From contig DATDEH010000016.1 in assembly GCA_036523395.1 (NCBI GenBank), forward strand, positions 1-49,358: a DNA stretch of 49,358 nt, written 5' to 3'. Below, in pieces: positions 25,956-37,857 of the stretch. The position numbers were made by a program, and so were the translations under genes. The DNA comes from Candidatus Limnocylindria bacterium. Its GTDB lineage: Bacteria; Chloroflexota; Limnocylindria; P2-11E. The notes beneath the pieces were generated by a model. That model saw only the letters and a list, made by a program, of their open reading frames with translations. It was not told where the DNA came from and made no database searches. Position 1 is the stretch's first letter. Every line of letters starts with the position of its first letter.

Positions 25956-27326
25956 ATGAGCAGCGACTTTTTCACCGAAGTGCCAGAACGGATCGGGTAC
26001 GGCGGGCCCGAGTCCTCCGATCCACTGTCGTACGCCGTCTACCAGCCTGACCGGGATGTCCTTGGGAAACGGATGGAGGACCACCTGCGCATCGCCGTCT
26101 GTCTCTGGCATTCATTCAACTGGCCCGGCTCGGACGTCTTCGGTGTCGGCACATTCGATCGGCCCTGGCTCTCCGGCGGTCTCGATGTGGCGACTGCCTC
26201 GCGAACGAAGCTCGACGCGGCGTTCGAATTCATCGAAAAGCTCGGCGTGCCCTTCTTCACATTTCACGATCGTGATGTCGCGCCCGAGGGCCACAGCTAC
26301 GCCGAGACGCGGTCGAACCTCGCTGCCAGCGTGGACCAGATCGAACGACACATGGCCCGCACCGGCGCGCGTCTTCTGTGGGGCACCGCGAACCTCTTCT
26401 CACACCCCCGCTACGCCGCCGGCGCTGCGACGAATCCCGATCCCGCGGTGTTCGCGTACGCGGCGGCCCAGGTCAAGACCATGCTCGAGGTCACCCACCG
26501 TCTTGGCGGTGCGAACTACGTTCTGTGGGGCGGGCGCGAGGGCTACGAGACGCTGCTGAACACGGATCTCAGGCAAGAGGAAGCCCAATTCGCGCGTTTC
26601 CTGGCACTTGTCGCGGAGCACAAGCACAGGATCGGTTTCAAGGGCACGCTGCTCATCGAGCCGAAGCCACAGGAACCGACGAAGCACCAGTACGACTACG
26701 ACGTTGCGAGCGTCGTTGGATTTCTCCAGCGCCACGATCTTGCCGGCGAGTTTCGCCTGAACCTCGAGGCCAACCACGCGACGCTCGCGGGCCATAGCTT
26801 CCACCACGAGGTCGCCAGCGCGATCGCGCTCGACGCGTTCGGCAGCATCGACGTCAACCGCGGCGACTACCAGAACGGTTGGGACACCGACCAGTTCCCG
26901 AACTCGGTCGACGAGCTATCGCTGGCGGTCTACGAATGTCTCGCCGCTGGAGGCTTCACGACCGGCGGCTTCAACTTCGACGCGAAGCTGCGGCGGCAGA
27001 GCGTGAGTCGGACCGATCTCTTCCACGCGCACATCAGCGGCATCGACACTCTCGCGAGATCGCTGCTTGTCGCCGCGGATATGGTCGAACAGAGCACGCT
27101 CGCGGCCGTGCGCAAAGAGCGCTACGCGGGTTGGTCCGACGACCTCGGCACTGCGATCCAGTCGGGTTCGGTAACGCTCGCCGACCTCGAGCGCAGGGTC
27201 GCGGCCGGCGAGATCGATCCGCGACCGAGATCCGGTCAGCAGGAGCTGCTCGAAGGCCTGGTCAACCGCCGCGTCTGGGCTTCCGATCGATCGCGCGAGC
27301 GCGCAACGGAGACGCGACGCCGTTAA
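25956..27326 (+). CDS. xylA: Xylose isomerase
   Basis: XylA converts D-xylose to D-xylulose with two divalent metals. The 456-residue protein has the catalytic FHDRD (His104, Asp107), the metal ligand Glu235 in [15 protein letters not shown] with Glu271 and His274, and SIDVNRGD with Asp299. GGAGGAG precedes the ATG at 25956. The frame is open for 441 codons before this ATG, but that is the shadow of the exporter genes. The Arg-rich tail is longer than in most relatives. Its TAA interlocks with the stop of the convergent ABC ATPase in TTAA. Confidence 0.96.
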
Positions 27327-28135
27327 CCGTGTAGCTCGGCGAGCTCCTGTCGCGTGAGCTTCGTCGGCGGCTTGCCCAGGATGATCATCCCGAGGACCTC
27401 GTCGGTCGTCACATCGTTCTTGTTCACGGTCCCGACGAGCTTGCCGTGGTACATGACGCTGATCCGCTCCGACAGGTCGAACACGTCGTGGATGTCATGG
27501 CTGACGAGAAAGATTCCGATCCCCTCGCTCTTGAGCTGCCGAATGAGGTCGTGCACCTGCGCGGTCTCCGCCGGGCCGAGAGCGGCCGTTGGCTCGTCCA
27601 TGATCAGGGCGCGGGCGTTGAAGTGGATCGCGCGAGCGATCGCGACGGCCTGGCGCTGTCCACCCGACAGTCGAAGGACCGGCGTTTTGAAGTTCTTGAA
27701 GTTCGGGTTCAGGCGACCGATCACTTTCCGCGCGGCAGACTCCATCGCGGAGTCGTCCAGCGTCGCAGCGGTCTGTAGCTCGCGGCCGAGGAAGACGTTC
27801 GCCGGCGCATCGAGATTGTCGGCGAGGGCGAGGGTCTGGTAGATCGTTTCGATCCCGAATGTCTTGGCGTCACGCGGATTGCCGATCGTGACCGGCCGGC
27901 CGTTGACCAGGACCTGGCCCGAGTCGGGCGGACGTGCGCCGGAAAGGGTCCGCATGAGCGTGGTCTTGCCCGCGCCGTTGCCGCCGACCACGCCAACGAC
28001 CTCGCCTGGATACAGGTCCAGCGTCACGCCGGCGACGGCTCGGACACCGCCGAACGCGACGTGGATGTTCCGCAGCTCGACCAGCGGAATGCGCTGCGCC
28101 GCCACAGCCGGCGTCTCCGGCGTGTGCGTCAGCAT
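27323..28135 (-). CDS. Sugar (xylose) ABC importer ATP-binding protein
   Basis: The 270-residue protein is a single ABC domain with Walker [10 protein letters not shown] (51-59), the signature LSGGQRQ (156-162) and Walker B LIMDEP (177-182). E. coli XylG has two fused ABC domains; single-domain forms like this occur in the FrcA type and in some actinobacterial xylose systems, and would act as a homodimer. It is the last gene of the binding protein, permease, ATPase operon facing xylA. Confidence 0.9.
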
Positions 28136-28142
28136 CGGCAGC

Positions 28143-29510
28143 TCAACTCACTCTCCGGCGGAAGACGGCGTCGAGGCCGACGGCCGCAACGAGCACGATG
28201 CCGACAACGATGTCCTGGGTTGGCGAGTCGACGAGCAGCAGCACCATGCCTGAGCGTAGCGACTGCATGACGACAGCACCGAGGATCGCGCCGGGGACCG
28301 TCCCGATGCCACCGGAAAAAGACGTCCCGCCGATGACCGCGGCGGAGATCACGTCGAGCTCGTTCTGGACACCGAGGCTCGTCACCGCGGCGTTCAGGCG
28401 AGCCGTTTGCACCGCGGCACTCACCGCAGCGAGGCTCCCCATGAGCGCGAACGTCAGCATGATCGTTCGACGGACGTTGATGCCGGCGAGCGCCGCGGCG
28501 TCGGGGTTACCGCCGATCGCATAGACGTAGCGCCCGAAGCGCCGCCTGGTCGCGAGGAACGTCACGACGAGCGTCACGACGAGCATGATCACGACCGGGA
28601 ACGCCACGCCTGTCGGAATGAAGAGCCCACCCGGCGGGACCGAGATCCCGTGCTCCTGCGCGTACTGCTCGGCGACGGCGGGCGGCAGCGGATAGCTGTT
28701 GGCGACCCACACGGTCCCGAGAACGATGCCGCAGGCCACGGCGCCCACGAGCAACTCCGCCCAGAGCGGGCGGACGGGGAAGCCGTAGCGCCGCTTGCGG
28801 CGGCGGGACGCGATCAGCGTGCCGACGATCCCAAGGCAGAGCGCCACGCCGAGGATCCAGCTCGGCCACTCGCCTAGCGCGCCGACGTTCGTTCCTACTG
28901 TTCCACCACCCAGCATCTGAAAGGTCCGATCGAGCGGCGCGATCGTCTGGCCCTGCGCGTAACGAAAGAGGAGACCGCGCCAGATCAGGAGGCCGCCGAG
29001 CGTCACGATGAATGAAGGCACACCCCCGTAGGCCACCACGAACCCCTGCAATCCGCCGATCGCCGCCCCGAGCACGATCCCGAGCACCAGCGTGAGCACC
29101 CACGTGTACGGCTGCTCGAGCCCAAGCCCGAGGCTCTGCGGGACCCATACGGCCTGGAACATCGCCATCGTGTAGCCAAGGAATCCGAGCATCGATCCAA
29201 CCGAGAGGTCGATGTTGCGCGAGACGATCACCAGGACCATCCCGGTTGCCATGATCGCGATCGAGGCGCTCTGGACCGACAGGTTCCAGAGGTTCCGCGC
29301 CGAGAGGAACGTCCCGCCCGACAAGACGTTGAAGGCGACCCAAATGATGATCAGCGCCGCGATCATGCCGAGCATCCGCGTTTCGATCTCGAGAGACCGC
29401 AGCACCCCCGAGGCGGGCGCGAGCGCCGAAGTGACAGCCGTCACGAACGAGCGAGTGGAGCGAGCGGGCCCGCTTTCCGCGCCAGTCTCCTGTGGGACCG
29501 AAGCTCCCAT
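28143..29510 (-). CDS. xylH: Sugar (xylose) ABC importer permease, XylH-like
   Basis: The 455-residue membrane protein is of the RbsC/XylH family with about 11-12 hydrophobic segments. Family motifs are [33 protein letters not shown] and the coupling region [19 protein letters not shown], followed by [20 protein letters not shown] central charged insert ([14 protein letters not shown]) separates two groups of helices, as in long XylH proteins. Substrate assignment to xylose comes from xylA and xylB nearby. Confidence 0.88.
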
Positions 29511-29609: not shown

Positions 29610-30659
29610 TCAACCGCAGGCGGCGGCCTTCCCGGCTGCCACGCCTTGGCACAGATCGGCCTTGGTGATCCAGCCTGCGTCGAGGACTTCCTTGAGGTTG
29701 TCCTTCGTGATCGGGTTTGGCGTCAGAAGGATCGAGTTGAGGCTGTTCCCACCGGGGGTCTTGAACACCGCTGTCGACTTCACCTTGCTCGGATCGGAGT
29801 TGTTGCACAGCTGCAGCGCAGCTTCGCCCGCGGTCTTTCCGAGCAAGCGAGCGTCCTTCCAGACGTCGACGGTCTGCGTGCCGAGCGCGACACGGTTGAG
29901 GGCGGCCTTGTCGCCGTCCTGACCGGACACCGGCACCTTGCCCGCGAGGCCCTGGGCCGTGAGCGCGGCGATCACGCCGCCGGCCATGCCGTCGTTCTCC
30001 GAGAGCACGGCATCGACCTTGTTCTGGTTCGCCGTCAGGATCTGTTCCATGTTGGTCTGCGCCTTCGCCGGGTCCCAGTTGTCCGTGTAGGTCTCGCCGA
30101 CGATCTTGATCTTGCCAGACTTCACCGCGTCGCCGATGACCTGGTCCATGCCACTGCGCAGGAAGTCCGCGTTCGCATCGGCCTTGTTGCCCTTGATGAT
30201 CGCGTAGTTGCCTTCGGGCTTCGCCTTGAAGACGGCCTGCGCCTCGAGCTTACCAACGAGGACGTTGTCGAAGGTGATGTACAGCGCCTTCGGATCCTCG
30301 ATGAGCCGGTCGTAGGCGATTGCCGGAACGCCGTTCTGGATCGCCTTCGCGACCGCCGGCTTGATGGCGGTGCCGTCCTGGGCAAGGATGATCACGACCT
30401 TCGCCCCTTGCGAGATCAGGTTGTCGACGTTGCTGGCCTGGGTCTCCGGTGACGACTTCGCGTCGTTGGAGATGTATTTCCCCTGACCGGCAGCGATGGC
30501 AGCCTTGATGGCCGGCTCGTCCCACTTCGCCCAGCGCTCTTCCTGATAGTTGTTCCACGAGACTCCGATCGTGCAGCCCGCGGCTGTGGTGGTGCCACCT
30601 CCGCACGCCGAGACGATCACGGTGAAGCCTGCTGCGAGCACCGCTAAGTACCTACGCAT
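29610..30659 (-). CDS. xylF: D-xylose-type ABC transporter substrate-binding lipoprotein
   Basis: The 349-residue protein has a lipoprotein signal peptide with the lipobox VSAC (Cys19) and a periplasmic-binding-protein type I fold. SWNNYQEERWAKWDEPAI, NLISQGAKVVIILAQDGTAI and AYDRLI are typical of the XylF/ChvE group. It should capture xylose outside the membrane for the permease encoded downstream. GAGGAGAGG precedes the ATG. It is divergent from the FG-GAP gene. Confidence 0.9.
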   Translation of the reverse strand: MRRYLAVLAAGFTVIVSACGGGTTTAAGCTIGVSWNNYQEERWAKWDEPAIKAAIAAGQGKYISNDAKSSPETQASNVDNLISQGAKVVIILAQDGTAIKPAVAKAIQNGVPAIAYDRLIEDPKALYITFDNVLVGKLEAQAVFKAKPEGNYAIIKGNKADANADFLRSGMDQVIGDAVKSGKIKIVGETYTDNWDPAKAQTNMEQILTANQNKVDAVLSENDGMAGGVIAALTAQGLAGKVPVSGQDGDKAALNRVALGTQTVDVWKDARLLGKTAGEAALQLCNNSDPSKVKSTAVFKTPGGNSLNSILLTPNPITKDNLKEVLDAGWITKADLCQGVAAGKAAACG

Positions 30660-30697
30660 CGAGCACCTCTCCTCACGTGAGCGCGACCCCGCTCGGA

Positions 30698-30711
30698 TGT
30701 CGCGGGCGACA
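30698..30711. promoter_or_regulatory. Inverted repeat, candidate operator in the xylF divergent spacer
   Basis: TGTCGC (30698-30703), a GG spacer, and GCGACA (30706-30711) form a short dyad in the 143-nt gap between xylF and the FG-GAP gene. It sits beside GCTAGC, which could be part of the xylF -10. No xylose regulator gene is in the window. Binding by such a regulator is inferred only. Confidence 0.3.
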
Positions 30712-30802
30712 CGCTAGCACCCTGCTCCCTGACATACGAATAGGGCGGTGGTCAGTCCGGCGCCTCGGGGCGATTCGCGCGACCATCGACGCATGGGGTG
30801 CG

Positions 30803-32497
30803 ATGACGCTGCACGCTGAACCGGGCACGCTCCGGGGGCCCCGCCGATGGCCTGCCACCCGGGTCGTGGTCGTCGTGATCACGTGTGCCGCGGTCGTTGG
30901 CGCCCTCGCGTCCGACGGTCTGCCTTCGGCGACACCGCTGGTCGCGCTCGGCACGCCGCATTTCGTCGACGAGACCGCCAGCGCGGGGATCGACCACGTC
31001 TACGGCGGCGGCTTCGAGCACGCCGTGGGCGGCGGGGTAGCCGTGTTCGATTGCAGTGGCGACGGAAAGCCTGACCTGTATCTCGCTGGGGGCAGCGCCT
31101 CGGCGGCGCTGTATCGGAACGACAGCTCCGTCGGTGGCGCCCTGCGATTCACTCGCCTCCCGGATCCGGCGACAGACCTGACCTCCGTCAACGGCGCTTA
31201 CCCCATCGACATCGACAGCGACGGGGTCACCGATCTCGTCGTACTCCGGAACGGTGAGAACGTCCTCCTGCGAGGCCTCGGCGGTTGCCGCTTCGACCGC
31301 GCGAACGAGAGATTGGGCTTGGGTCTCAGCCCTTCCGCCACCGAGGCGTTCAGCGCGACGTGGGAGGCCGCCGCGACGCTGCCGACCCTTGCCTTCGGGA
31401 ACTACGTCGATCCCGCCAGCAACGATCCGCACCATCTCTGTTTCGACAACGAGCTGGTGCGCCCGACGGCCACGGCGGCGACCTACGCACCACCGATCCC
31501 ACTGACCCCGAGCTGGTGCGCGCTCTCCATGCTGTTCAGCGATTGGAGTCGCTCGGGCCGAAGCGACCTGCGCGTGAGCAATGACCTGCACTACTACCTG
31601 CCCACGGATGGCCAGGAGCAGCTCTGGCGCGTGAGGCCGCGCGAGCGGCCTTCGCTGTACACGTCGGACGACGGATGGGTGACCGTGCAGATACAGGGGA
31701 TGGGTATCGCGAGCTACGACCTCAGCGGCGACGGCTACCCGGAGGTCTTTCTCACGAGCCAAACGGACAACCGGCTGCAGACGCTCACCGCCGGTCCGTC
31801 CCAGCCGACCTACCGCGACGTCGGGCTGAGACGCGGAGTCAATGCGCCCCGGCCATTCACCGGCGGCGACATCCGACCATCCACAGCCTGGCACGACGAG
31901 TTCGCGGACGTCAACAACGACGGCCTCATCGATCTCTTCATCTCGAAGGGCAATGTCACAGAGCAGGCCGACTACGCCCAGCGGGACCCGAGCGACCTTC
32001 TGCTCGGGCAGCCGGACGGAACGTTCCACGAGGCCGCCGATATCGCCGGCATCCTTAACTTCGACCGAGGCCGAGGAGCAGCGCTCGCGGACTTCAATCT
32101 CGACGGGCTGCTCGATCTTGTCATCGTCAATTACGGCGCGCCGGTCCGGTTATGGCGGAACGTCGGTGCAGGCGACGCATCGCGCTCGCGCGCAATGGGC
32201 AACTGGATCGCGCTACGTGTTCAGCAGACCGCGCCGAACGTCGACGCGATCGGAGCGTGGGTGGAGGTCCGCGTCGGCGAGCGCGTCCTTCGACGCGAGC
32301 TGACGATCGGGGGCGGTCACGCGGGCGGCCAGCTCGGCTGGGTCCACTTTGGGCTGGGCACGGCCGCGCGCGCCGACGTTCGCGTCGCGTGGCCGGGCGG
32401 CGAGATCGGCCCGTGGATCAACGTCACCGCGAATGAATTCGTGATCGTGACCCGCGAGGCGGCCGATGCGCGTAACTGGTCGCCGGGCGGAAGCTGA
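30803..32497 (+). CDS. FG-GAP/VCBS repeat protein with C-terminal ASPIC/UnbV domain (CRTAC1-like)
   Basis: The product has an N-terminal membrane or signal helix (about residues 20-36), then FG-GAP-like beta-propeller repeats with calcium-type loops (DCSGDGKPDLYLAGG, DIDSDGVTDLVVLR, DLSGDGYPEVFLT, DVNNDGLIDLFIS, DFNLDGLLDLVIV), and an ASPIC/UnbV domain ending in HFGLGTAARADVRVAWPGG. It should be secreted or surface-anchored; a binding or scaffold role is likely. I use the ATG at 30803 (564 residues); the frame is open 42 codons earlier. The next gene, 72 nt on, is a haloperoxidase. Confidence 0.85.
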   Translation: MTLHAEPGTLRGPRRWPATRVVVVVITCAAVVGALASDGLPSATPLVALGTPHFVDETASAGIDHVYGGGFEHAVGGGVAVFDCSGDGKPDLYLAGGSASAALYRNDSSVGGALRFTRLPDPATDLTSVNGAYPIDIDSDGVTDLVVLRNGENVLLRGLGGCRFDRANERLGLGLSPSATEAFSATWEAAATLPTLAFGNYVDPASNDPHHLCFDNELVRPTATAATYAPPIPLTPSWCALSMLFSDWSRSGRSDLRVSNDLHYYLPTDGQEQLWRVRPRERPSLYTSDDGWVTVQIQGMGIASYDLSGDGYPEVFLTSQTDNRLQTLTAGPSQPTYRDVGLRRGVNAPRPFTGGDIRPSTAWHDEFADVNNDGLIDLFISKGNVTEQADYAQRDPSDLLLGQPDGTFHEAADIAGILNFDRGRGAALADFNLDGLLDLVIVNYGAPVRLWRNVGAGDASRSRAMGNWIALRVQQTAPNVDAIGAWVEVRVGERVLRRELTIGGGHAGGQLGWVHFGLGTAARADVRVAWPGGEIGPWINVTANEFVIVTREAADARNWSPGGS

Positions 32498-32552
32498 CTT
32501 CGGACGTCGCCGGACTTCCGCTAGCGTGGCGTCGCGAGGAGAGGAAGAGCCA

Positions 32553-32573
32553 GTGCCGGCTTCGTCAACGTGA
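32553..32573 (+). other. Possible six-codon leader ORF before the haloperoxidase gene
   Basis: A strong Shine-Dalgarno tract (GAGGAGAGGAAGAG) precedes a GTG whose frame reads six codons and stops at TGA (32571-32573). That TGA overlaps the haloperoxidase GTG (32570) in GTGA, while the haloperoxidase start has no Shine-Dalgarno sequence of its own. This could be translational coupling through a mini-ORF. Confidence 0.3.
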
Positions 32574-34444
32574 TCCGACGGTTGCCACGGGGTGCGCGGA
32601 TCCGCGCCCTCGGGGCGGCGCTCGCCGTTGTCGTGGTGACCGGTGCGGTCATCGTGACGACGCGTCCATGGGAACAGACGCCGACGTGCCCGCCGATCGC
32701 GGACAACCCGACGTGGTCGGTGGCGCGGCGCTGGGACGAGGCGCTGCTCGACGCGATCCGACGCGCTCTGCCGAATCCTCCGGTGCACGCACGGAATCTG
32801 TTCCACGTCTCCGTCGCCATGTGGGATGCGTGGGCCGCTTACGACTCAACCGCATCCGGTTACATCTTCAAGGAGAAGGTCCATGCAGGCGACGTGAACG
32901 CCGCACGGAGTGAGTCGATCAGCTACGCGGCGTACCGCGTCCTGACCACGCGCTTCATCAAGGCCGTCGGCGCCGACAAGTCACTGGGCGAGTTCGACGA
33001 TCTCATGGACGCACTCTGCCTTCCGATCTCGACAACGACGACCGACGGCGATTCACCAGCGGCGGTCGGAAACCGGATCGCGAGGGCGGTGCTCGACTAC
33101 GGAAAAGCGGACGGCTCGAACGAGGTGAACGCCTACGCCGACCCGAGCTACAGGCCGGTCAACCCTCCGCTCATCGTCGCGAAACCGGGGATCACGCTGG
33201 TCGACCCGAACCGCTGGCAGCCGCTCCAGCTGGAGAACATGATCAGCCAGAACGGGATCCCGGTAGCGAACGGCGTTCAGCAGGCCGTCGGGCCGCACTG
33301 GGGCCACGTGACCCCGTTCGCGATCCCCGCCGGCGGCACATCCGGTACCCCTATAGATCCCGGGCCGCCTCCGCGCCTGGGTGACTCAGCGACCGATGCG
33401 GTCTACCACGCGCAGGCTCTCGAGGTCCTCCGAGACAGCGGCCTCCTCGATGCATCGAACGCGTCACCGATCGACATCTCGCCGCGCGCGATCGGCGCCA
33501 ACGGTCTCGGGTCGAACGACGGACACGGGTATCCGCTCAACCCCGTCACGGGCAAGCCGTACGCGACAGACCTCGTGCGACAAGGAGACTTCTACCGGGC
33601 CGTGGTGGAGTTCTGGGCCGACGGCCCGGCGTCCGAGACGCCTCCGGGCCATTGGAACGTCATCGCGAATTCAGTCTCGGACCAGCTCTCACCGAACCTG
33701 CGCATCGGAGGGACCGGTCCCGTCCTCGACCGGCTGCAATGGGACGTGAAGATGTACCTCGCGCTCAACGGCGCCGTCCACGATGCGGCGATCGCGGCGT
33801 GGGGCCTGAAGGGCCGATACGACGGGATCCGACCGATCTCGATGATCCGCTACATGGCGAGTCTCGGGCAGTCGAGCGATCCGTCGCGTGCGGCGTACAA
33901 CACGGAGGGACTGCCGCTCGTGCCCGGGCTCATCGAGCTGATCTCGAAAGATGACACGGCATCCGGCGCGAGGATGGCCGCTCTCGCAGGCCACGAAGGC
34001 GAGATCGCGGTACGCGCGTGGCAGGGGAACCCAGCGGATCCCAAGACGCAGAGCTCGCCAGTGGCGTGGATCCTCGGCATCGCGTGGGTGCCGTACCAGC
34101 TGCCAACGTTCGTGACTCCCTCGTTCCAGGGTTACATCTCGGGCCACAGCACCTTCAGCCGCGCCGCGGCGGAGGTCCTGACCGGGATCACCGGCAGTCA
34201 GTACTTCCCAGGCGGTCTCTACGAGTCGACCATCACACGCGGCTCGTTCAGGGTCGAGGCCGGGCCAAGCGCCGACGTCGTCCTGCGCTGGGCGACGTAC
34301 TACGACGCTGCGGATCAAGCTGGTCAGTCGCGTCTGTACGGCGGGATCCATGTGCAGGCGGACGACTTCACAGGTCGCATCGTGGGCTCGACGTGCGGCA
34401 AGGACGCCTGGATCGTCGCGCAGCGCTACTACTCCGGGCGGTAA
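32570..34444 (+). CDS. Vanadium-dependent haloperoxidase-family protein
   Basis: The 624-residue protein has an N-terminal membrane or signal helix (about 13-32) and an all-helical haloperoxidase/PAP2 domain. The full vanadate-binding signature is present: Lys414 and Arg421 in K-x6-RP, Ser524-Gly525-His526 (SGH), and Arg588 with His594 in SR-x5-H-x3-D. Such enzymes oxidise halide with peroxide to hypohalous acid; phosphatase activity is an alternative for this fold. It follows the FG-GAP gene and precedes xylB by 5 nt, so the three are probably one operon. The halide specificity cannot be read from sequence. Confidence 0.88.
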   Translation: MIRRLPRGARIRALGAALAVVVVTGAVIVTTRPWEQTPTCPPIADNPTWSVARRWDEALLDAIRRALPNPPVHARNLFHVSVAMWDAWAAYDSTASGYIFKEKVHAGDVNAARSESISYAAYRVLTTRFIKAVGADKSLGEFDDLMDALCLPISTTTTDGDSPAAVGNRIARAVLDYGKADGSNEVNAYADPSYRPVNPPLIVAKPGITLVDPNRWQPLQLENMISQNGIPVANGVQQAVGPHWGHVTPFAIPAGGTSGTPIDPGPPPRLGDSATDAVYHAQALEVLRDSGLLDASNASPIDISPRAIGANGLGSNDGHGYPLNPVTGKPYATDLVRQGDFYRAVVEFWADGPASETPPGHWNVIANSVSDQLSPNLRIGGTGPVLDRLQWDVKMYLALNGAVHDAAIAAWGLKGRYDGIRPISMIRYMASLGQSSDPSRAAYNTEGLPLVPGLIELISKDDTASGARMAALAGHEGEIAVRAWQGNPADPKTQSSPVAWILGIAWVPYQLPTFVTPSFQGYISGHSTFSRAAAEVLTGITGSQYFPGGLYESTITRGSFRVEAGPSADVVLRWATYYDAADQAGQSRLYGGIHVQADDFTGRIVGSTCGKDAWIVAQRYYSGR

Positions 34445-34449
34445 CGCAG

Positions 34450-35898
34450 ATGCGGCGGGTCTTTCTCGGCGTGGACTGCGGCACGCAGTCGACCAAGGTC
34501 GTGCTCCGCGATCCGGAGACGGGCGCGGTCATTGCCGTCGGTCGCGCGCCACATGAGCTCGTCGAGCGCGACGACGGCACGCGCGAGCAGGACCCCGACT
34601 GGTGGACCCGCGCGCTCCGTGGCGCGGTGCGCGATGCGATGCGCGGCGAGCGGTTCGAGGTCGGTGGCATCGGCGTGTCCGCGCAGCAGCACGGGCTCGT
34701 GTGCCTCGATCAGAGCGACAGACCAGTACGGGCGGCGAAGCTCTGGAACGACACGACGACCGCGCGGGAATGCGAAGAGCTCACGCGCAAGATCGGCGGC
34801 GCCGACCGAGTCAGGGAGCTGACGGGCAACCAGTTCCTACCCGGTTACACGGCGCCGAAGATCGTGTGGCTCGCCGCACACGAGCCGGCGTCGTACGCGC
34901 GCACCGCTCGGATGTGCCTGCCACACGACTATCTGAATCTGTGGCTCACGGGCGAGTTCATCAGCGAGGCCGGCGACGCATCGGGCACGGCGTACTTCGA
35001 CGTTCGCGCGCGCCGCTATAGCGAGGCCGTGCTTGCCGCGATCGACGGAGCACGCGACTGGGAACGCACGCTGCCAACGATCGCGCCGTCGCTCAGCATC
35101 ATCGGCACGCTGCGCCGCGAGGCCGCGGAGTCGCTTGGTCTCGAAGGGGCCGTCCCGGTCAGCGCCGGCGGCGGCGACAACATGATCGCCGCGATCGGCT
35201 GCGACGTCGTCGCCCAGGGTCCGGTCGCGGTGAGCCTGGGGACCTCTGGCACCGTGTTCGCGTACCGCGACGAACCCGCGGTCGACCCACTTGGCGAGGC
35301 CGCGGCGTTCTGCGACTCGACGGGTGGCTGGCTCCCGCTCGCGGCCACCCTCAATTGCACGAGCGCGACCGAGTGGGTGCGCGCACTGTTCGCGATGGAC
35401 CATGCGGATGTCGACGCGGCGATCACGCGTGAAGGCGCGCCCGGGCTCTCGTTCCTACCCTACCTCTCCGGCGAGCGAACGCCGAACCGGCCGGAGGGCG
35501 CTGGTGTCTTCGTCGGCATGCGTTCCAGTCACGGACGCGACGAGATCGTCCATGCTGTCGTCGAAGGCGTGACGATCGGGCTCGCGTACGCGCTCGATGC
35601 GCTACGGCGCACGGGCGTCGCACCGACCGTCGTAACGCTCATCGGTGGAGGGTCGGCGTCGGACCCGTGGGCGCAGCTGTGCGCCGATGTTTTCGAGCTC
35701 CCCGTCGTGCGTCCAGCATTCACAGAGGCCGCCGCGTCGGGCGCCGCGCGCCAGGCGCAGTGGGCTGTCGAGCGAAGGCGTCCCGACCTCGCGCCGACAT
35801 CCGCTCGACGGTTCGAACCGCGGCCCCGACCCGAGCTGCGAGAGGCCGCGGAGCGTATGGCCGCACTTCGCGAGATCGCGAGAGCGAATCGGCTGTGA
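34450..35898 (+). CDS. xylB: Xylulokinase
   Basis: XylB phosphorylates D-xylulose to xylulose 5-phosphate, the step after XylA. The 482-residue FGGY kinase has the N-terminal phosphate loop GVDCGTQSTK with Asp9, GIGVSAQQHGLVCLD, AKLWNDTTT, the SGTAYFDVR block, the central GGGDNMIAAIG, and the C-terminal ATP-site GGGSASDPWAQLCADVF. The ATG at 34450 fits the family N-terminus; the frame is open upstream into the haloperoxidase gene. Only 5 nt separate it from that gene. Confidence 0.94.
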   Translation: MRRVFLGVDCGTQSTKVVLRDPETGAVIAVGRAPHELVERDDGTREQDPDWWTRALRGAVRDAMRGERFEVGGIGVSAQQHGLVCLDQSDRPVRAAKLWNDTTTARECEELTRKIGGADRVRELTGNQFLPGYTAPKIVWLAAHEPASYARTARMCLPHDYLNLWLTGEFISEAGDASGTAYFDVRARRYSEAVLAAIDGARDWERTLPTIAPSLSIIGTLRREAAESLGLEGAVPVSAGGGDNMIAAIGCDVVAQGPVAVSLGTSGTVFAYRDEPAVDPLGEAAAFCDSTGGWLPLAATLNCTSATEWVRALFAMDHADVDAAITREGAPGLSFLPYLSGERTPNRPEGAGVFVGMRSSHGRDEIVHAVVEGVTIGLAYALDALRRTGVAPTVVTLIGGGSASDPWAQLCADVFELPVVRPAFTEAAASGAARQAQWAVERRRPDLAPTSARRFEPRPRPELREAAERMAALREIARANRL

Positions 35899-35925: not shown

Positions 35926-36783
35926 TCAGACCTTCCATGTCCATCGCTCGGTCGCGCGCAGGCTGTCTCCGGGCTCGAGTATCCGTAAGCCTGTATCGAA
36001 GACGCCTGACGCTGCGAGAACGGGTGCGTTCGGCCACATCGTCTGAGGTTCCACGCAGATCCCTTCTCCTGGCGTATGCACGACGACCGTCTGCACGCTC
36101 GCGTCATGTTCCATACGTAGCTCCAGATCGGGCCACCGCACGATGGCAGGGCCCTTGGTCCTCACGTAGACATGGTCCAGACGACGGTCGCCCACCAGGG
36201 GGCCGGACCGCAGGTCCTCATCACGAGTGACCCGTCGAACCTCGCCGGTCGGCACGAGGTCCGCGTCGAGCACGAGCACTTCGTACGCATCGACGACGAC
36301 GCCCACGTCGCCGCTCCGCGGTCGAGTGAACCACGGATGCCAGCCGAGGCCCGCGGGCCCCGCCTTCTCGTACCCGCCGACCTCCAGCTCGAGCTCGAGC
36401 GCGCCTGCGCCGAGTCTCAGCGTTTGCCGGGCATGGCCACCGAAGGGCCACCCACTGCCGCGCAGCTCACAGCTCATCGTGACCGCGGTCTCACTTCGCT
36501 TGACGATGTCCCACGATTTGTCGAAGGCAAGGCCATGAATGGCCGAAGGCGGAAGATTCGGCGCGAGCCGCACCTCACCTTCCTTCGTCGGGATACGGCC
36601 TCCCGAAAGCCGCCCCGCCCACGGCACCATCGGATAGCAGCCCCAATAGATCGCCGGCGCGCGCGCGCGAGCGCGCGCCTTCGGGAGGATCCGCTCCACG
36701 CCGGCGAGGACCAGCGAAACGATCCTGCCCCCTTCGGCGGGATCGATACGCGTGACGACGCCGCCCGCACTCAGCTCGATCAT
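35926..36783 (-). CDS. Aldose 1-epimerase family protein
   Basis: The 285-residue protein has the galactose mutarotase fold with the catalytic pair His83 (IHGLAF) and His149 (GWHPWF) and the general base Glu245 (CVEPQTMWPNA). It should interconvert alpha and beta anomers of an aldose, here perhaps xylose, feeding XylA. I use the ATG at 36783; the frame runs further up through a terminator hairpin and is not coding there. It is convergent with xylB, with a 27-nt gap. Confidence 0.87.
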   Translation of the reverse strand: MIELSAGGVVTRIDPAEGGRIVSLVLAGVERILPKARARARAPAIYWGCYPMVPWAGRLSGGRIPTKEGEVRLAPNLPPSAIHGLAFDKSWDIVKRSETAVTMSCELRGSGWPFGGHARQTLRLGAGALELELEVGGYEKAGPAGLGWHPWFTRPRSGDVGVVVDAYEVLVLDADLVPTGEVRRVTRDEDLRSGPLVGDRRLDHVYVRTKGPAIVRWPDLELRMEHDASVQTVVVHTPGEGICVEPQTMWPNAPVLAASGVFDTGLRILEPGDSLRATERWTWKV

Positions 36784-36823
36784 CACCACAGAGCGTCGAG
36801 CATGCACGGTCCTCCGGATACGC

Positions 36824-36855
36824 GAACGCCCCTCGGCCGAAGCCGAGGGGCGTTC
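36824..36855. terminator. UUCG-loop hairpin terminator after the CHRD gene
   Basis: A 14-bp perfect stem, GAACGCCCCTCGGC (36824-36837) with its complement (36842-36855), closes a four-base loop that reads TTCG on the minus strand, a very stable tetraloop. It is 3' of the CHRD lipoprotein gene and upstream of the epimerase gene. There is no T-tract. Confidence 0.55.
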
Positions 36856-36933
36856 CAGCGGAGGACGGACGGTCGTTACTGCGGCGTGGCGAAGCCACAC
36901 GCCAGGCAGATGAGCGCCGCAAAGGCGGCGCGA

Positions 36934-37515
36934 TTACTGCTTGACGAGCTGACCTCGGATGACTCCACCGGGGGCAAGCGTGGAGTGCCAGTTCATGTAG
37001 TAGTTCGCGGGGTTCGCGATGATGTCTGTCGCGAGGGCCGCAGCGGTAAGCCCTCCCGCATCGACGACGGTCGCCGTCTTGTTGATCTTCCCCGCGCCAG
37101 CGGTGAGCGTGAGCTCGCCCGCGGCAAGTCCGGAGTTCACGACGACGCCGCCGTTCGCGCCAGCCGCTGCCTTGTGGATGTGGCCGATGTTGATCTTGGT
37201 ATCGGCCGGGCAGCCGGTGACGTCCGTCTCGAACAACGCGATCGCCGCGGTGATGACGCCGGCGGCGTCCTTGGTTGTCGTCAGCGTGAACGTGCCCTTA
37301 CCCGCGCACGTCGCTTCCGGGCCGGTGATCGGAGGAACTTCGTTCGATGGCTTGAGGTCCGCGGTGAAGATGAACTTGAGCTGCGGCGTCGGCGCAGGTG
37401 TTGGCGTGGCCGCTACCGTCGGCTGGATCGTGGGCGACGCGGTCGGAGCGACTGCTGCGGGCCCGCAGGCGCCCAGCACGATCACCCCGGCAGTGAGCCC
37501 AGCAAGAAGACGCAT
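36934..37515 (-). CDS. CHRD-domain lipoprotein
   Basis: The 193-residue protein has a lipoprotein signal with lipobox LGAC (Cys17), a Thr/Pro/Ala-rich linker (about 20-48), and one CHRD domain with the NEVPP motif, GHIHKA and the terminal block YYMNWHSTLAPGGVIRGQL. CHRD domains are extracellular and of unknown biochemical role in bacteria. GAGGAGGTG precedes the ATG at 37515; the frame is open upstream into the RNase P RNA and is not coding there. A strong hairpin follows. Confidence 0.87.
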   Translation of the reverse strand: MRLLAGLTAGVIVLGACGPAAVAPTASPTIQPTVAATPTPAPTPQLKFIFTADLKPSNEVPPITGPEATCAGKGTFTLTTTKDAAGVITAAIALFETDVTGCPADTKINIGHIHKAAAGANGGVVVNSGLAAGELTLTAGAGKINKTATVVDAGGLTAAALATDIIANPANYYMNWHSTLAPGGVIRGQLVKQ

Positions 37516-37570
37516 AGACACCTCCTCGTGTACGGCCGTAGTACGGGCCCAACGCGATTCTGGATGAAGA

Positions 37571-37857
37571 CCCGAGCAGGCCAATAAGCCGGATCCCGTC
37601 GTGGACGGTCATCTCTCTGGGACGGAGGTCACCCTCCGCCTCTAGCGGCGCACCCGGGGACGGCGCGGGCCACGCCATCGCCCCCATACATCGCCTTGCT
37701 CCGGGAAGAGCTTGCCTCGTTTCACCCGCTTGCGCGGATCGTCACTGTGGCGCTGGTCCTCGCCTCGCGGCGGACGGGTGTTACCCGCTTCCCTGCCCTG
37801 TGGAGTCCGGACTTTCCTCGACGGCTTTCGCCGCCGCGACCGTCTGGCCTGCTCGGA
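37571..37857 (-). ncRNA. rnpB: RNase P RNA (bacterial class A)
   Basis: The minus strand carries the conserved 5' core GAGGAAAGTCCGGACTCC and ACAGGGCAGGG, and the 3' core GACGGGATCCGGCTTAT. P1 is an 11-bp helix between CCGAGCAGGCC at the 5' end (37856-37846) and GGCCTGCTCGG at the 3' end (37582-37572). The 287-nt size is a little short for class A. This catalytic RNA removes tRNA 5' leaders. Ends are set by P1 and may be off by a few bases. Confidence 0.93.

What the first reader, a model, noticed from the sequence alone, without database searches (positions are those of the whole stretch)
30803..35898. Secreted FG-GAP/ASPIC protein and vanadium haloperoxidase in one operon with xylulokinase
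The three genes are on the plus strand, with gaps of 72 nt and 5 nt, inside a locus that holds xylA, a xylose-type ABC importer and an aldose epimerase. The haloperoxidase keeps every vanadate-site residue (Lys414, Arg421, Ser524, His526, Arg588, His594). Inference: hypohalous acid made outside the cell could attack lignin or lignin-xylan links and release xylose, with the FG-GAP/ASPIC protein as partner or anchor. I know of no described system that ties this enzyme to pentose catabolism.
Basis: partly seen in the sequence, partly recalled or inferred. Interest (0 to 1): 0.7.

Follow-up and report, generated by a model that had tools for sequence, protein, structure and literature searches.

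The report
Haloperoxidase pair in a xylose operon
In one class of Chloroflexota bacteria, an exported enzyme that should turn halide salts into bleach-like oxidants, together with a propeller-type partner protein, is built into the genes for taking up and using the plant sugar xylose, a link that holds across dozens of genomes and that I could not find described.

Summary
Window 30803-35898 (+) holds an FG-GAP/ASPIC protein, a vanadium haloperoxidase (VHPO) and xylulokinase (gaps 72 and 5 nt), divergent from a XylF-type importer and near xylA and an aldose epimerase. All named vanadate-site residues are present at exactly the spacings of Curvularia VCPO, plus its two putative halide-site residues; the predicted fold matches VHPO structures first.

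VHPO orthologues were examined in 35 genomes: 29 have xyl genes within 4 kb, the other six lie near contig ends. None of 22 more distant VHPOs in the phylum has them. The set is arranged in at least four ways yet stays together. Across 101 relatives the FG-GAP gene and xylF are present or absent together (38/1/6/56). In the window's family FGGAP-VHPO-xylB is a conserved operon.

Outside the class, 43 of 80 VHPO relatives are fused or adjacent to an FG-GAP protein, with no xylose locus. So the pair is an old extracellular module, recruited to xylose use in this lineage.

Lignin attack stays inference: no oxidase in the locus, no GH10 or above-cut-off GH43 in the genome, no expression data. Real, conserved, apparently undescribed: a new variant of a known kind.

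The parts
30803..32497 (+). FG-GAP/ASPIC (CRTAC1-like) exported protein, 564 aa, N-terminal signal/anchor segment, FG-GAP Ca-loop repeats, C-terminal UnbV_ASPIC domain
   Evidence: Pfam PF13517, PF07593 above cut-off; N-terminal hydrophobic segment in 30 of 30 orthologues; orthologues in 39 of 101 relatives
32570..34444 (+). vanadium-dependent haloperoxidase, 624 aa, N-terminal signal anchor; vanadate site K414 R421 S524 G525 H526 R588 H594, halide-site positions W411 F519
34450..35898 (+). xylB, xylulokinase
   Evidence: TIGR01312 513 bits, cut-off 380; gap to VHPO 3-20 nt in seven relatives with intact frames
30660..30802 (.). divergent control region between xylF and the FG-GAP gene; holds a GGTC-A-GACC type palindrome (degenerate in the window: GGTCAGTCC, 30750-30758)
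   Evidence: perfect GGTCNGACC in the same place in nine or more relatives of the family, with other conserved blocks. In the window itself the motif is not above chance
29610..30659 (-). XylF-type sugar-binding protein (lipoprotein-like N-terminus)
   Evidence: best model TIGR02634 xylF 370 bits, just below cut-off
28143..29510 (-). sugar ABC importer permease (XylH/GguB-like)
   Evidence: PF02653, best NCBIfam GguB
27323..28135 (-). sugar ABC importer ATPase, single ABC domain (XylG-like)
   Evidence: PF00005, best NCBIfam xylose ABC ATPase PRK13549
25956..27326 (+). xylA, xylose isomerase (class II)
   Evidence: TIGR02630 626 bits, cut-off 533
35926..36900 (-). aldose 1-epimerase
   Evidence: PF01263

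Best explanation
FGGAP and VHPO form a two-protein (elsewhere one-protein) haloperoxidase that is exported and probably held on the outer face of the membrane. In this Chloroflexota class it has become a standing part of the xylose-use locus and, in the window's family, is transcribed with xylulokinase. Most likely working: xylose (or the pentose it signals) switches on importer, kinase and haloperoxidase together; the VHPO binds vanadate, uses H2O2 made elsewhere to oxidise halide, and the hypohalous acid acts close to the cell on plant-derived material, with the FG-GAP/ASPIC propeller positioning the enzyme; liberated or scavenged xylose enters through XylFGH and goes through XylA and XylB. 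Shown here: genes, residues, fold, partnership, conserved xylose linkage. Inferred: export and anchoring (from N-termini), halide oxidation, co-induction, target. My odds for the steps: part of the xylose locus 0.9; haloperoxidase chemistry 0.75; target is plant polymer 0.35.
For: Linkage: 29 of 35 orthologues have a xyl gene within 4 kb and the other six lie near contig ends; 0 of 22 more distant VHPOs do. At least four arrangements keep the set together: FGGAP-VHPO-xylB opposite xylF; xylF opposite ROK/Gfo-Idh-MocA-VHPO-FGGAP; FGGAP divergent from VHPO; VHPO and FGGAP on opposite sides of xylFHG. Presence/absence with xylF 38/1/6/56 of 101 relatives, including concordant absence inside genera that hold it (G001, G003 in g1; G032 in g13). 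Where class II xylA is replaced by class I xylA (TIGR02631 above cut-off; L042, L072) the pair is still there; in L042 predicted transketolase and ribose-5-phosphate isomerase B (my reading of the sequence) follow it. Upstream oxidoreductase's best model is D-xylose 1-dehydrogenase Gfo6, below cut-off. Partnership: 36 of 80 outside relatives are fused to and 7 adjacent to FG-GAP proteins (domains confirmed by Pfam). Site: spacings equal those of Curvularia VCPO as listed in PMC9144378 (K353, R360, S402, G403, H404, R490, H496, W350, F397). Fold: model pLDDT 82, pTM 0.86, PDB matches are VHPOs. Exported: hydrophobic N-terminal segment in 27 of 28 VHPOs and 30 of 30 FG-GAP proteins; some Bacteroidota relatives carry Por secretion tails.
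Against: No H2O2-forming oxidase recognised in the locus; one GMC oxidoreductase lies elsewhere in the genome. No GH10 and no GH43 above cut-off, so no partner for polymer breakdown is evident. Outside the class the pair lives without xylose genes, so its chemistry does not need xylose. Some genomes have xylF without the pair (six), or the FG-GAP gene without VHPO (four). In families f3/f4 xylB is not in the VHPO transcript.
Confidence: 0.4

Rival explanations
1. The pair is a competition or signal-quenching device: when the cell feeds on xylose it makes hypohalous acid or haloamines outside to suppress neighbours that would take the sugar, or to destroy their signals. Same chemistry, different target.
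For: Haloperoxidases halogenate without substrate specificity and have been proposed to act in microbial antagonism (PMC4926216) and shown to inactivate quorum signals in a diatom (PMC3917277 abstract). The module occurs in many marine bacteria without xylose genes. The genome lacks GH10 and above-cut-off GH43, fitting a scavenger of free sugar.
Against: Does not by itself explain why the link is to xylose and not to sugar use in general; no immunity or signal genes recur in the locus.
Confidence: 0.25
2. The VHPO works as an extracellular phosphatase of the PAP2 superfamily, freeing sugars from phosphate esters before uptake.
For: VHPOs and bacterial acid phosphatases share the active-site pattern (PMC9144378); K-X6-R-P and S-R-X5-H-X3-D are present. 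This would link naturally to sugar uptake.
Against: W411, F519 and the two-bundle VHPO fold are kept; small acid phosphatases are far weaker structural matches (E about 0.05 against 1e-19). No xylose phosphate is a known outside nutrient (my knowledge).
Confidence: 0.12
3. The enzyme consumes H2O2 or alters the cell's own envelope or exopolysaccharide during growth on pentose; nothing outside is attacked.
For: Both proteins look membrane-anchored; in three loci without a nearby VHPO or at its edge the FG-GAP gene sits with a carboxymuconolactone decarboxylase/AhpD-like gene.
Against: No envelope or polysaccharide synthesis genes recur in the locus.
Confidence: 0.13
4. Hitch-hiking: an old neighbourhood kept by descent, without a functional tie.
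For: All xylose-linked VHPOs form one clade.
Against: Gene order and strand were rebuilt several times while the set stayed together; within-genus losses are concordant; isomerase type was swapped with the pair kept.
Confidence: 0.06

Closest known systems
Vanadium chloroperoxidase of Curvularia inaequalis (1VNC, 1IDQ) and bacterial NapH1/NapH3/XhnO11
   Same: Active-site residues and their spacings; two-bundle fold; PDB matches E 1e-19 (NapH1, XhnO11) and 1e-11 (VCPO). Proposed secreted oxidant of lignocellulose for the fungal enzyme (my knowledge).
   Different: Only 14-20% identity. In NapH3 and XhnO11 the acid-base His is replaced (SGF, SGS in the alignments); here SGH is kept. Partner FG-GAP/ASPIC protein and xylose locus are not part of those systems as I know them.
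CRTAC1 / ASPIC-UnbV FG-GAP proteins
   Same: FG-GAP repeats plus C-terminal UnbV_ASPIC domain above Pfam cut-off.
   Different: Standing partner of, or fused to, a VHPO; no paper in the held library joins the terms FG-GAP or CRTAC1 with haloperoxidase.
Bacterial xylose operons (xylFGH, xylA, xylB with ROK-type regulator)
   Same: xylFGH-type importer, xylA, xylB; ROK regulator in families f3/f4.
   Different: Carries an exported haloperoxidase pair; single-domain ATPase; often a Gfo/Idh/MocA oxidoreductase and an M24-like protein beside it.

Membership tests
vanadium-dependent haloperoxidase | vanadate-site Lys, Arg, Ser, Gly, Arg, His at VCPO spacing | tested here: met
   K414, R421 (+7), S524, G525, R588, H594 (+6); same offsets as K353/R360, R490/H496
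vanadium-dependent haloperoxidase | acid-base His two after the Ser | tested here: met
   H526, invariant in 45 sequences
vanadium-dependent haloperoxidase | halide-site aromatic residues (W350, F397 in VCPO) | tested here: met
   W411 (K minus 3) and F519 (S minus 5), invariant
vanadium-dependent haloperoxidase | two-helix-bundle VHPO fold | tested here: met
   model pTM 0.86; top 17 PDB matches all VHPOs or homologues
vanadium-dependent haloperoxidase | binds vanadate and oxidises halide with H2O2 | not testable with these tools
   needs protein
PAP2 acid phosphatase | KX6RP, PSGH, SRX5HX3D motif | tested here: inconclusive
   first and third present; second is ISGH, not PSGH; motif is shared with VHPOs
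CRTAC1/ASPIC-UnbV protein | FG-GAP repeats and UnbV_ASPIC domain | tested here: met
   PF13517 69.9 bits, PF07593 44.6 bits, above cut-off
xylose utilisation locus | xylA and xylB | tested here: met
   TIGR02630, TIGR01312 over cut-off
xylose utilisation locus | xylose-specific ABC importer | tested here: inconclusive
   XylF best model, 370 bits against cut-off 389.55
xylan polysaccharide utilisation locus | xylan hydrolases in locus or genome | tested here: not met
   no GH10, no GH43 over cut-off in a 95%-complete genome; other GH families not searched

The most novel reading that the evidence does not exclude
A bacterial pentose regulon that includes its own extracellular halide-oxidation machine: xylose induces a membrane-tethered FG-GAP/VHPO pair whose hypohalous acid loosens lignin-carbohydrate material, so that bacteria without xylanases can forage xylose oxidatively.
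Probability: 0.25. Interest if true: 0.88.

Novelty: new variant of a known kind. Interest (0 to 1): 0.62.

Why it matters
Physiological roles of bacterial VHPOs outside secondary metabolism are largely unknown, and natural organochlorine formation in soil lacks assigned enzymes and organisms (the question of PMC4926216). Here a VHPO with an intact site is tied, by conserved gene linkage over three families of one class, to use of a plant sugar, which gives a concrete testable condition (xylose or xylan) and a defined partner. The FG-GAP/ASPIC to VHPO fusion seen in several phyla also gives a first functional lead for the poorly understood ASPIC/CRTAC1 proteins.

Tried and rejected
Hitch-hiking by synteny: rejected as main reading because order changes while the set persists. 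A GntR-type operator (TGGTCNGACCA) shared by xylF and the FG-GAP gene: conserved in relatives but degenerate in the window and not above chance there; kept only as a lead. Transfer of the whole locus to family f55: VHPO and XylF trees place f55 differently and those genomes carry 6-8% contamination, so not claimed. G352's fused gene as a Chloroflexota example: its contig is 95% identical to an alphaproteobacterial MAG contig over the VHPO, probably mis-binned. Structure of the fused protein to see how the propeller docks: pTM 0.54, not usable. A VHPO-oxidase pair: a GMC oxidoreductase C-terminal fragment follows the pair in L072 only. Promoter scan of the locus: one match, equal to chance. Papers joining VHPO with FG-GAP, CRTAC1, xylose and Chloroflexi, or Chloroflexota: none in the held library.

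Full report
Observation. The three genes, their strand and their gaps are as described. Pfam and NCBIfam identify an FG-GAP/ASPIC protein, a VHPO (DUF6851 plus VCPO_2nd), xylulokinase, a XylF-type binding protein, a BPD_transp_2 permease, a single-domain sugar ATPase, class II xylose isomerase and an aldose epimerase. A review lists the vanadate ligands of Curvularia VCPO as K353, R360, S402, G403, R490, with H404 catalytic and F397 and W350 as putative halide-site residues (PMC9144378; H496 from its reference list); the window protein has the same spacings (K414/R421, S524/G525/H526, R588/H594, W411, F519). All of these are invariant in 45 relatives.

Fold. With 45 sequences AlphaFold2 gives pLDDT 82 and pTM 0.86. 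Foldseek's best PDB matches are bacterial VHPOs (XhnO11, NapH1, NapH3; E 1e-18 to 1e-20), then an iodoperoxidase and Curvularia VCPO; acid phosphatases appear only at E about 0.05. So it is a VHPO by sequence, site and fold; activity is untested.

Neighbourhood in relatives. The VHPO was found in 37 of 101 relatives at E up to 0.001; 35 orthologous loci (55-84% identity in the best segment) including two from another family of the phylum were examined with flanks. An FG-GAP orthologue lies beside the VHPO in 33, 4.9 kb away in one (L056), and is missing only where the contig ends (L061). In 29 a xylA, xylB, xylF, xylG or xylH gene lies within 4 kb; the six without (L039, L041, L052, L058, L059, L061) have a contig end within 3.4 kb on at least one side. 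Of 22 more distant VHPOs in the phylum (26-45% identity) none has such a neighbour.

Arrangements. In the window's family (f1) the order is xylA>, xylG<, xylH<, xylF<, FGGAP>, VHPO>, xylB>; the VHPO-xylB gap is 3-20 nt in the seven relatives with intact frames (two further assemblies have a broken VHPO frame). In f3/f4 it is xylA>, xylB>, xylG<, xylH<, xylF<, ROK regulator<, Gfo/Idh/MocA>, VHPO>, FGGAP>, M24-like>, often aldose epimerase>. In L054 FGGAP and VHPO are divergent; in L056 they flank xylFHG; in L058/L059 FGGAP-VHPO is followed by an aldose epimerase. Two loci (L042, L072) use class I xylose isomerase (TIGR02631 over cut-off) instead of class II and keep the pair. In L042 the downstream genes look like transketolase and ribose-5-phosphate isomerase B (read, not scanned).

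Phyletic pattern. Counting strong matches in 101 relatives, FG-GAP and xylF are both present in 38, FG-GAP alone in 1 (an incomplete genome), xylF alone in 6, neither in 56; VHPO and FG-GAP 35/0/4/62. Fisher p values (about 1e-20) ignore relatedness and are not quoted as evidence; more telling are near relatives that lack everything at once, such as G001 and G003 in the window's genus and the 99%-complete G032 in a genus whose other members have the set. Two of the six 'xylF alone' cases (G050, G070) end at a contig edge where the pair would lie.

Outside the class. In 36 the VHPO open frame also holds FG-GAP repeats and in 7 a separate FG-GAP frame is adjacent; Pfam confirms FG-GAP_3, UnbV_ASPIC, an InlB B-repeat and the VHPO domains in one 1252-aa protein (L073), and clustering finds a separate FG-GAP protein nearby in 11. 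Some Bacteroidota forms carry Por secretion tails and copper-binding MopE repeats instead. No xylose locus occurs there (one distant FGGY kinase, L130). The xylose-linked VHPOs form one clade apart from these. So partnership is old and general; the xylose link is a lineage-specific recruitment.

Export. 27 of 28 VHPOs and 30 of 30 FG-GAP proteins begin with a basic stretch and a hydrophobic segment, mostly without a clear cleavage site; two FG-GAP and two VHPO N-termini match a loose lipobox pattern. I read this as tethering outside the membrane (inference).

Regulation. The xylF-FGGAP intergenic region holds conserved blocks in f1, among them GGTCNGACC in nearly all relatives. In the window it is degenerate and not above chance. 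It looks like a GntR-type operator (my knowledge); untested.

Mechanism. H2O2 plus halide to hypohalous acid is the known reaction of the family. A xylose-linked, outward-facing enzyme could act on plant polymers, as has been proposed for fungal haloperoxidases (my knowledge), on competitors or on their signals. The genome has no GH10 and no GH43 over cut-off, which leaves room for both oxidative foraging and mere scavenging. No oxidase was recognised in the locus; one GMC oxidoreductase is elsewhere. I therefore accept the linkage and the chemistry, and hold the lignin target as one of several possibilities.

Limits. Genomes are drafts without names; that the phylum is Chloroflexota follows from G352, listed as same phylum, being the record 'Chloroflexi bacterium SB0662_bin_61'. 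Gene calls in relatives are crude. The literature search covers only the held open-access library.

Noticed in passing
window 27323-28135: The xylose-type importer's ATPase has a single ABC domain (270 aa) where the xylG, araG and rbsA models are about 500 positions long; conserved in all relatives' loci.
   Followed up: partly
L073 5555-9313 (G352); L109, L110, L112, L114 and others: FG-GAP/ASPIC and VHPO fused in single proteins of about 1200-1400 aa in sponge- and marine-associated Pseudomonadota; G352's copy is probably a mis-binned alphaproteobacterial contig.
   Followed up: yes
L048 5641-7215, L039 4754-6343 and ten other loci: An M24 (creatinase/aminopeptidase P-like) protein follows FGGAP in f3/f4 loci; Pfam score marginal (22.8 against 23), role unknown.
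   Followed up: partly
L090, L093, L105: FG-GAP orthologue next to a carboxymuconolactone decarboxylase/AhpD-like gene and an RnfD-like membrane protein, without VHPO beside it.
   Followed up: no
L141, L156, L176: Marine Alteromonadales VHPO + FG-GAP loci also hold a gene that looks like a flavin-dependent tryptophan-halogenase family protein (identified by eye).
   Followed up: no
L152 2380-5340: Saprospiraceae VHPO carries several MopE copper-binding repeats and a Por secretion tail.
   Followed up: no
window 36934-37584: Exported CHRD-domain protein upstream of the aldose epimerase, next to the RNase P RNA gene (37569-37855, -).
   Followed up: no
window 44-43 kb and 1-16 kb: The xylose locus sits between a cell-division/cell-wall cluster (FtsZ-, FtsA-, Mur-like frames, about 0.8-16 kb) and ParA/ParB-like genes (40.9-42.7 kb), identified by eye.
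   Followed up: no
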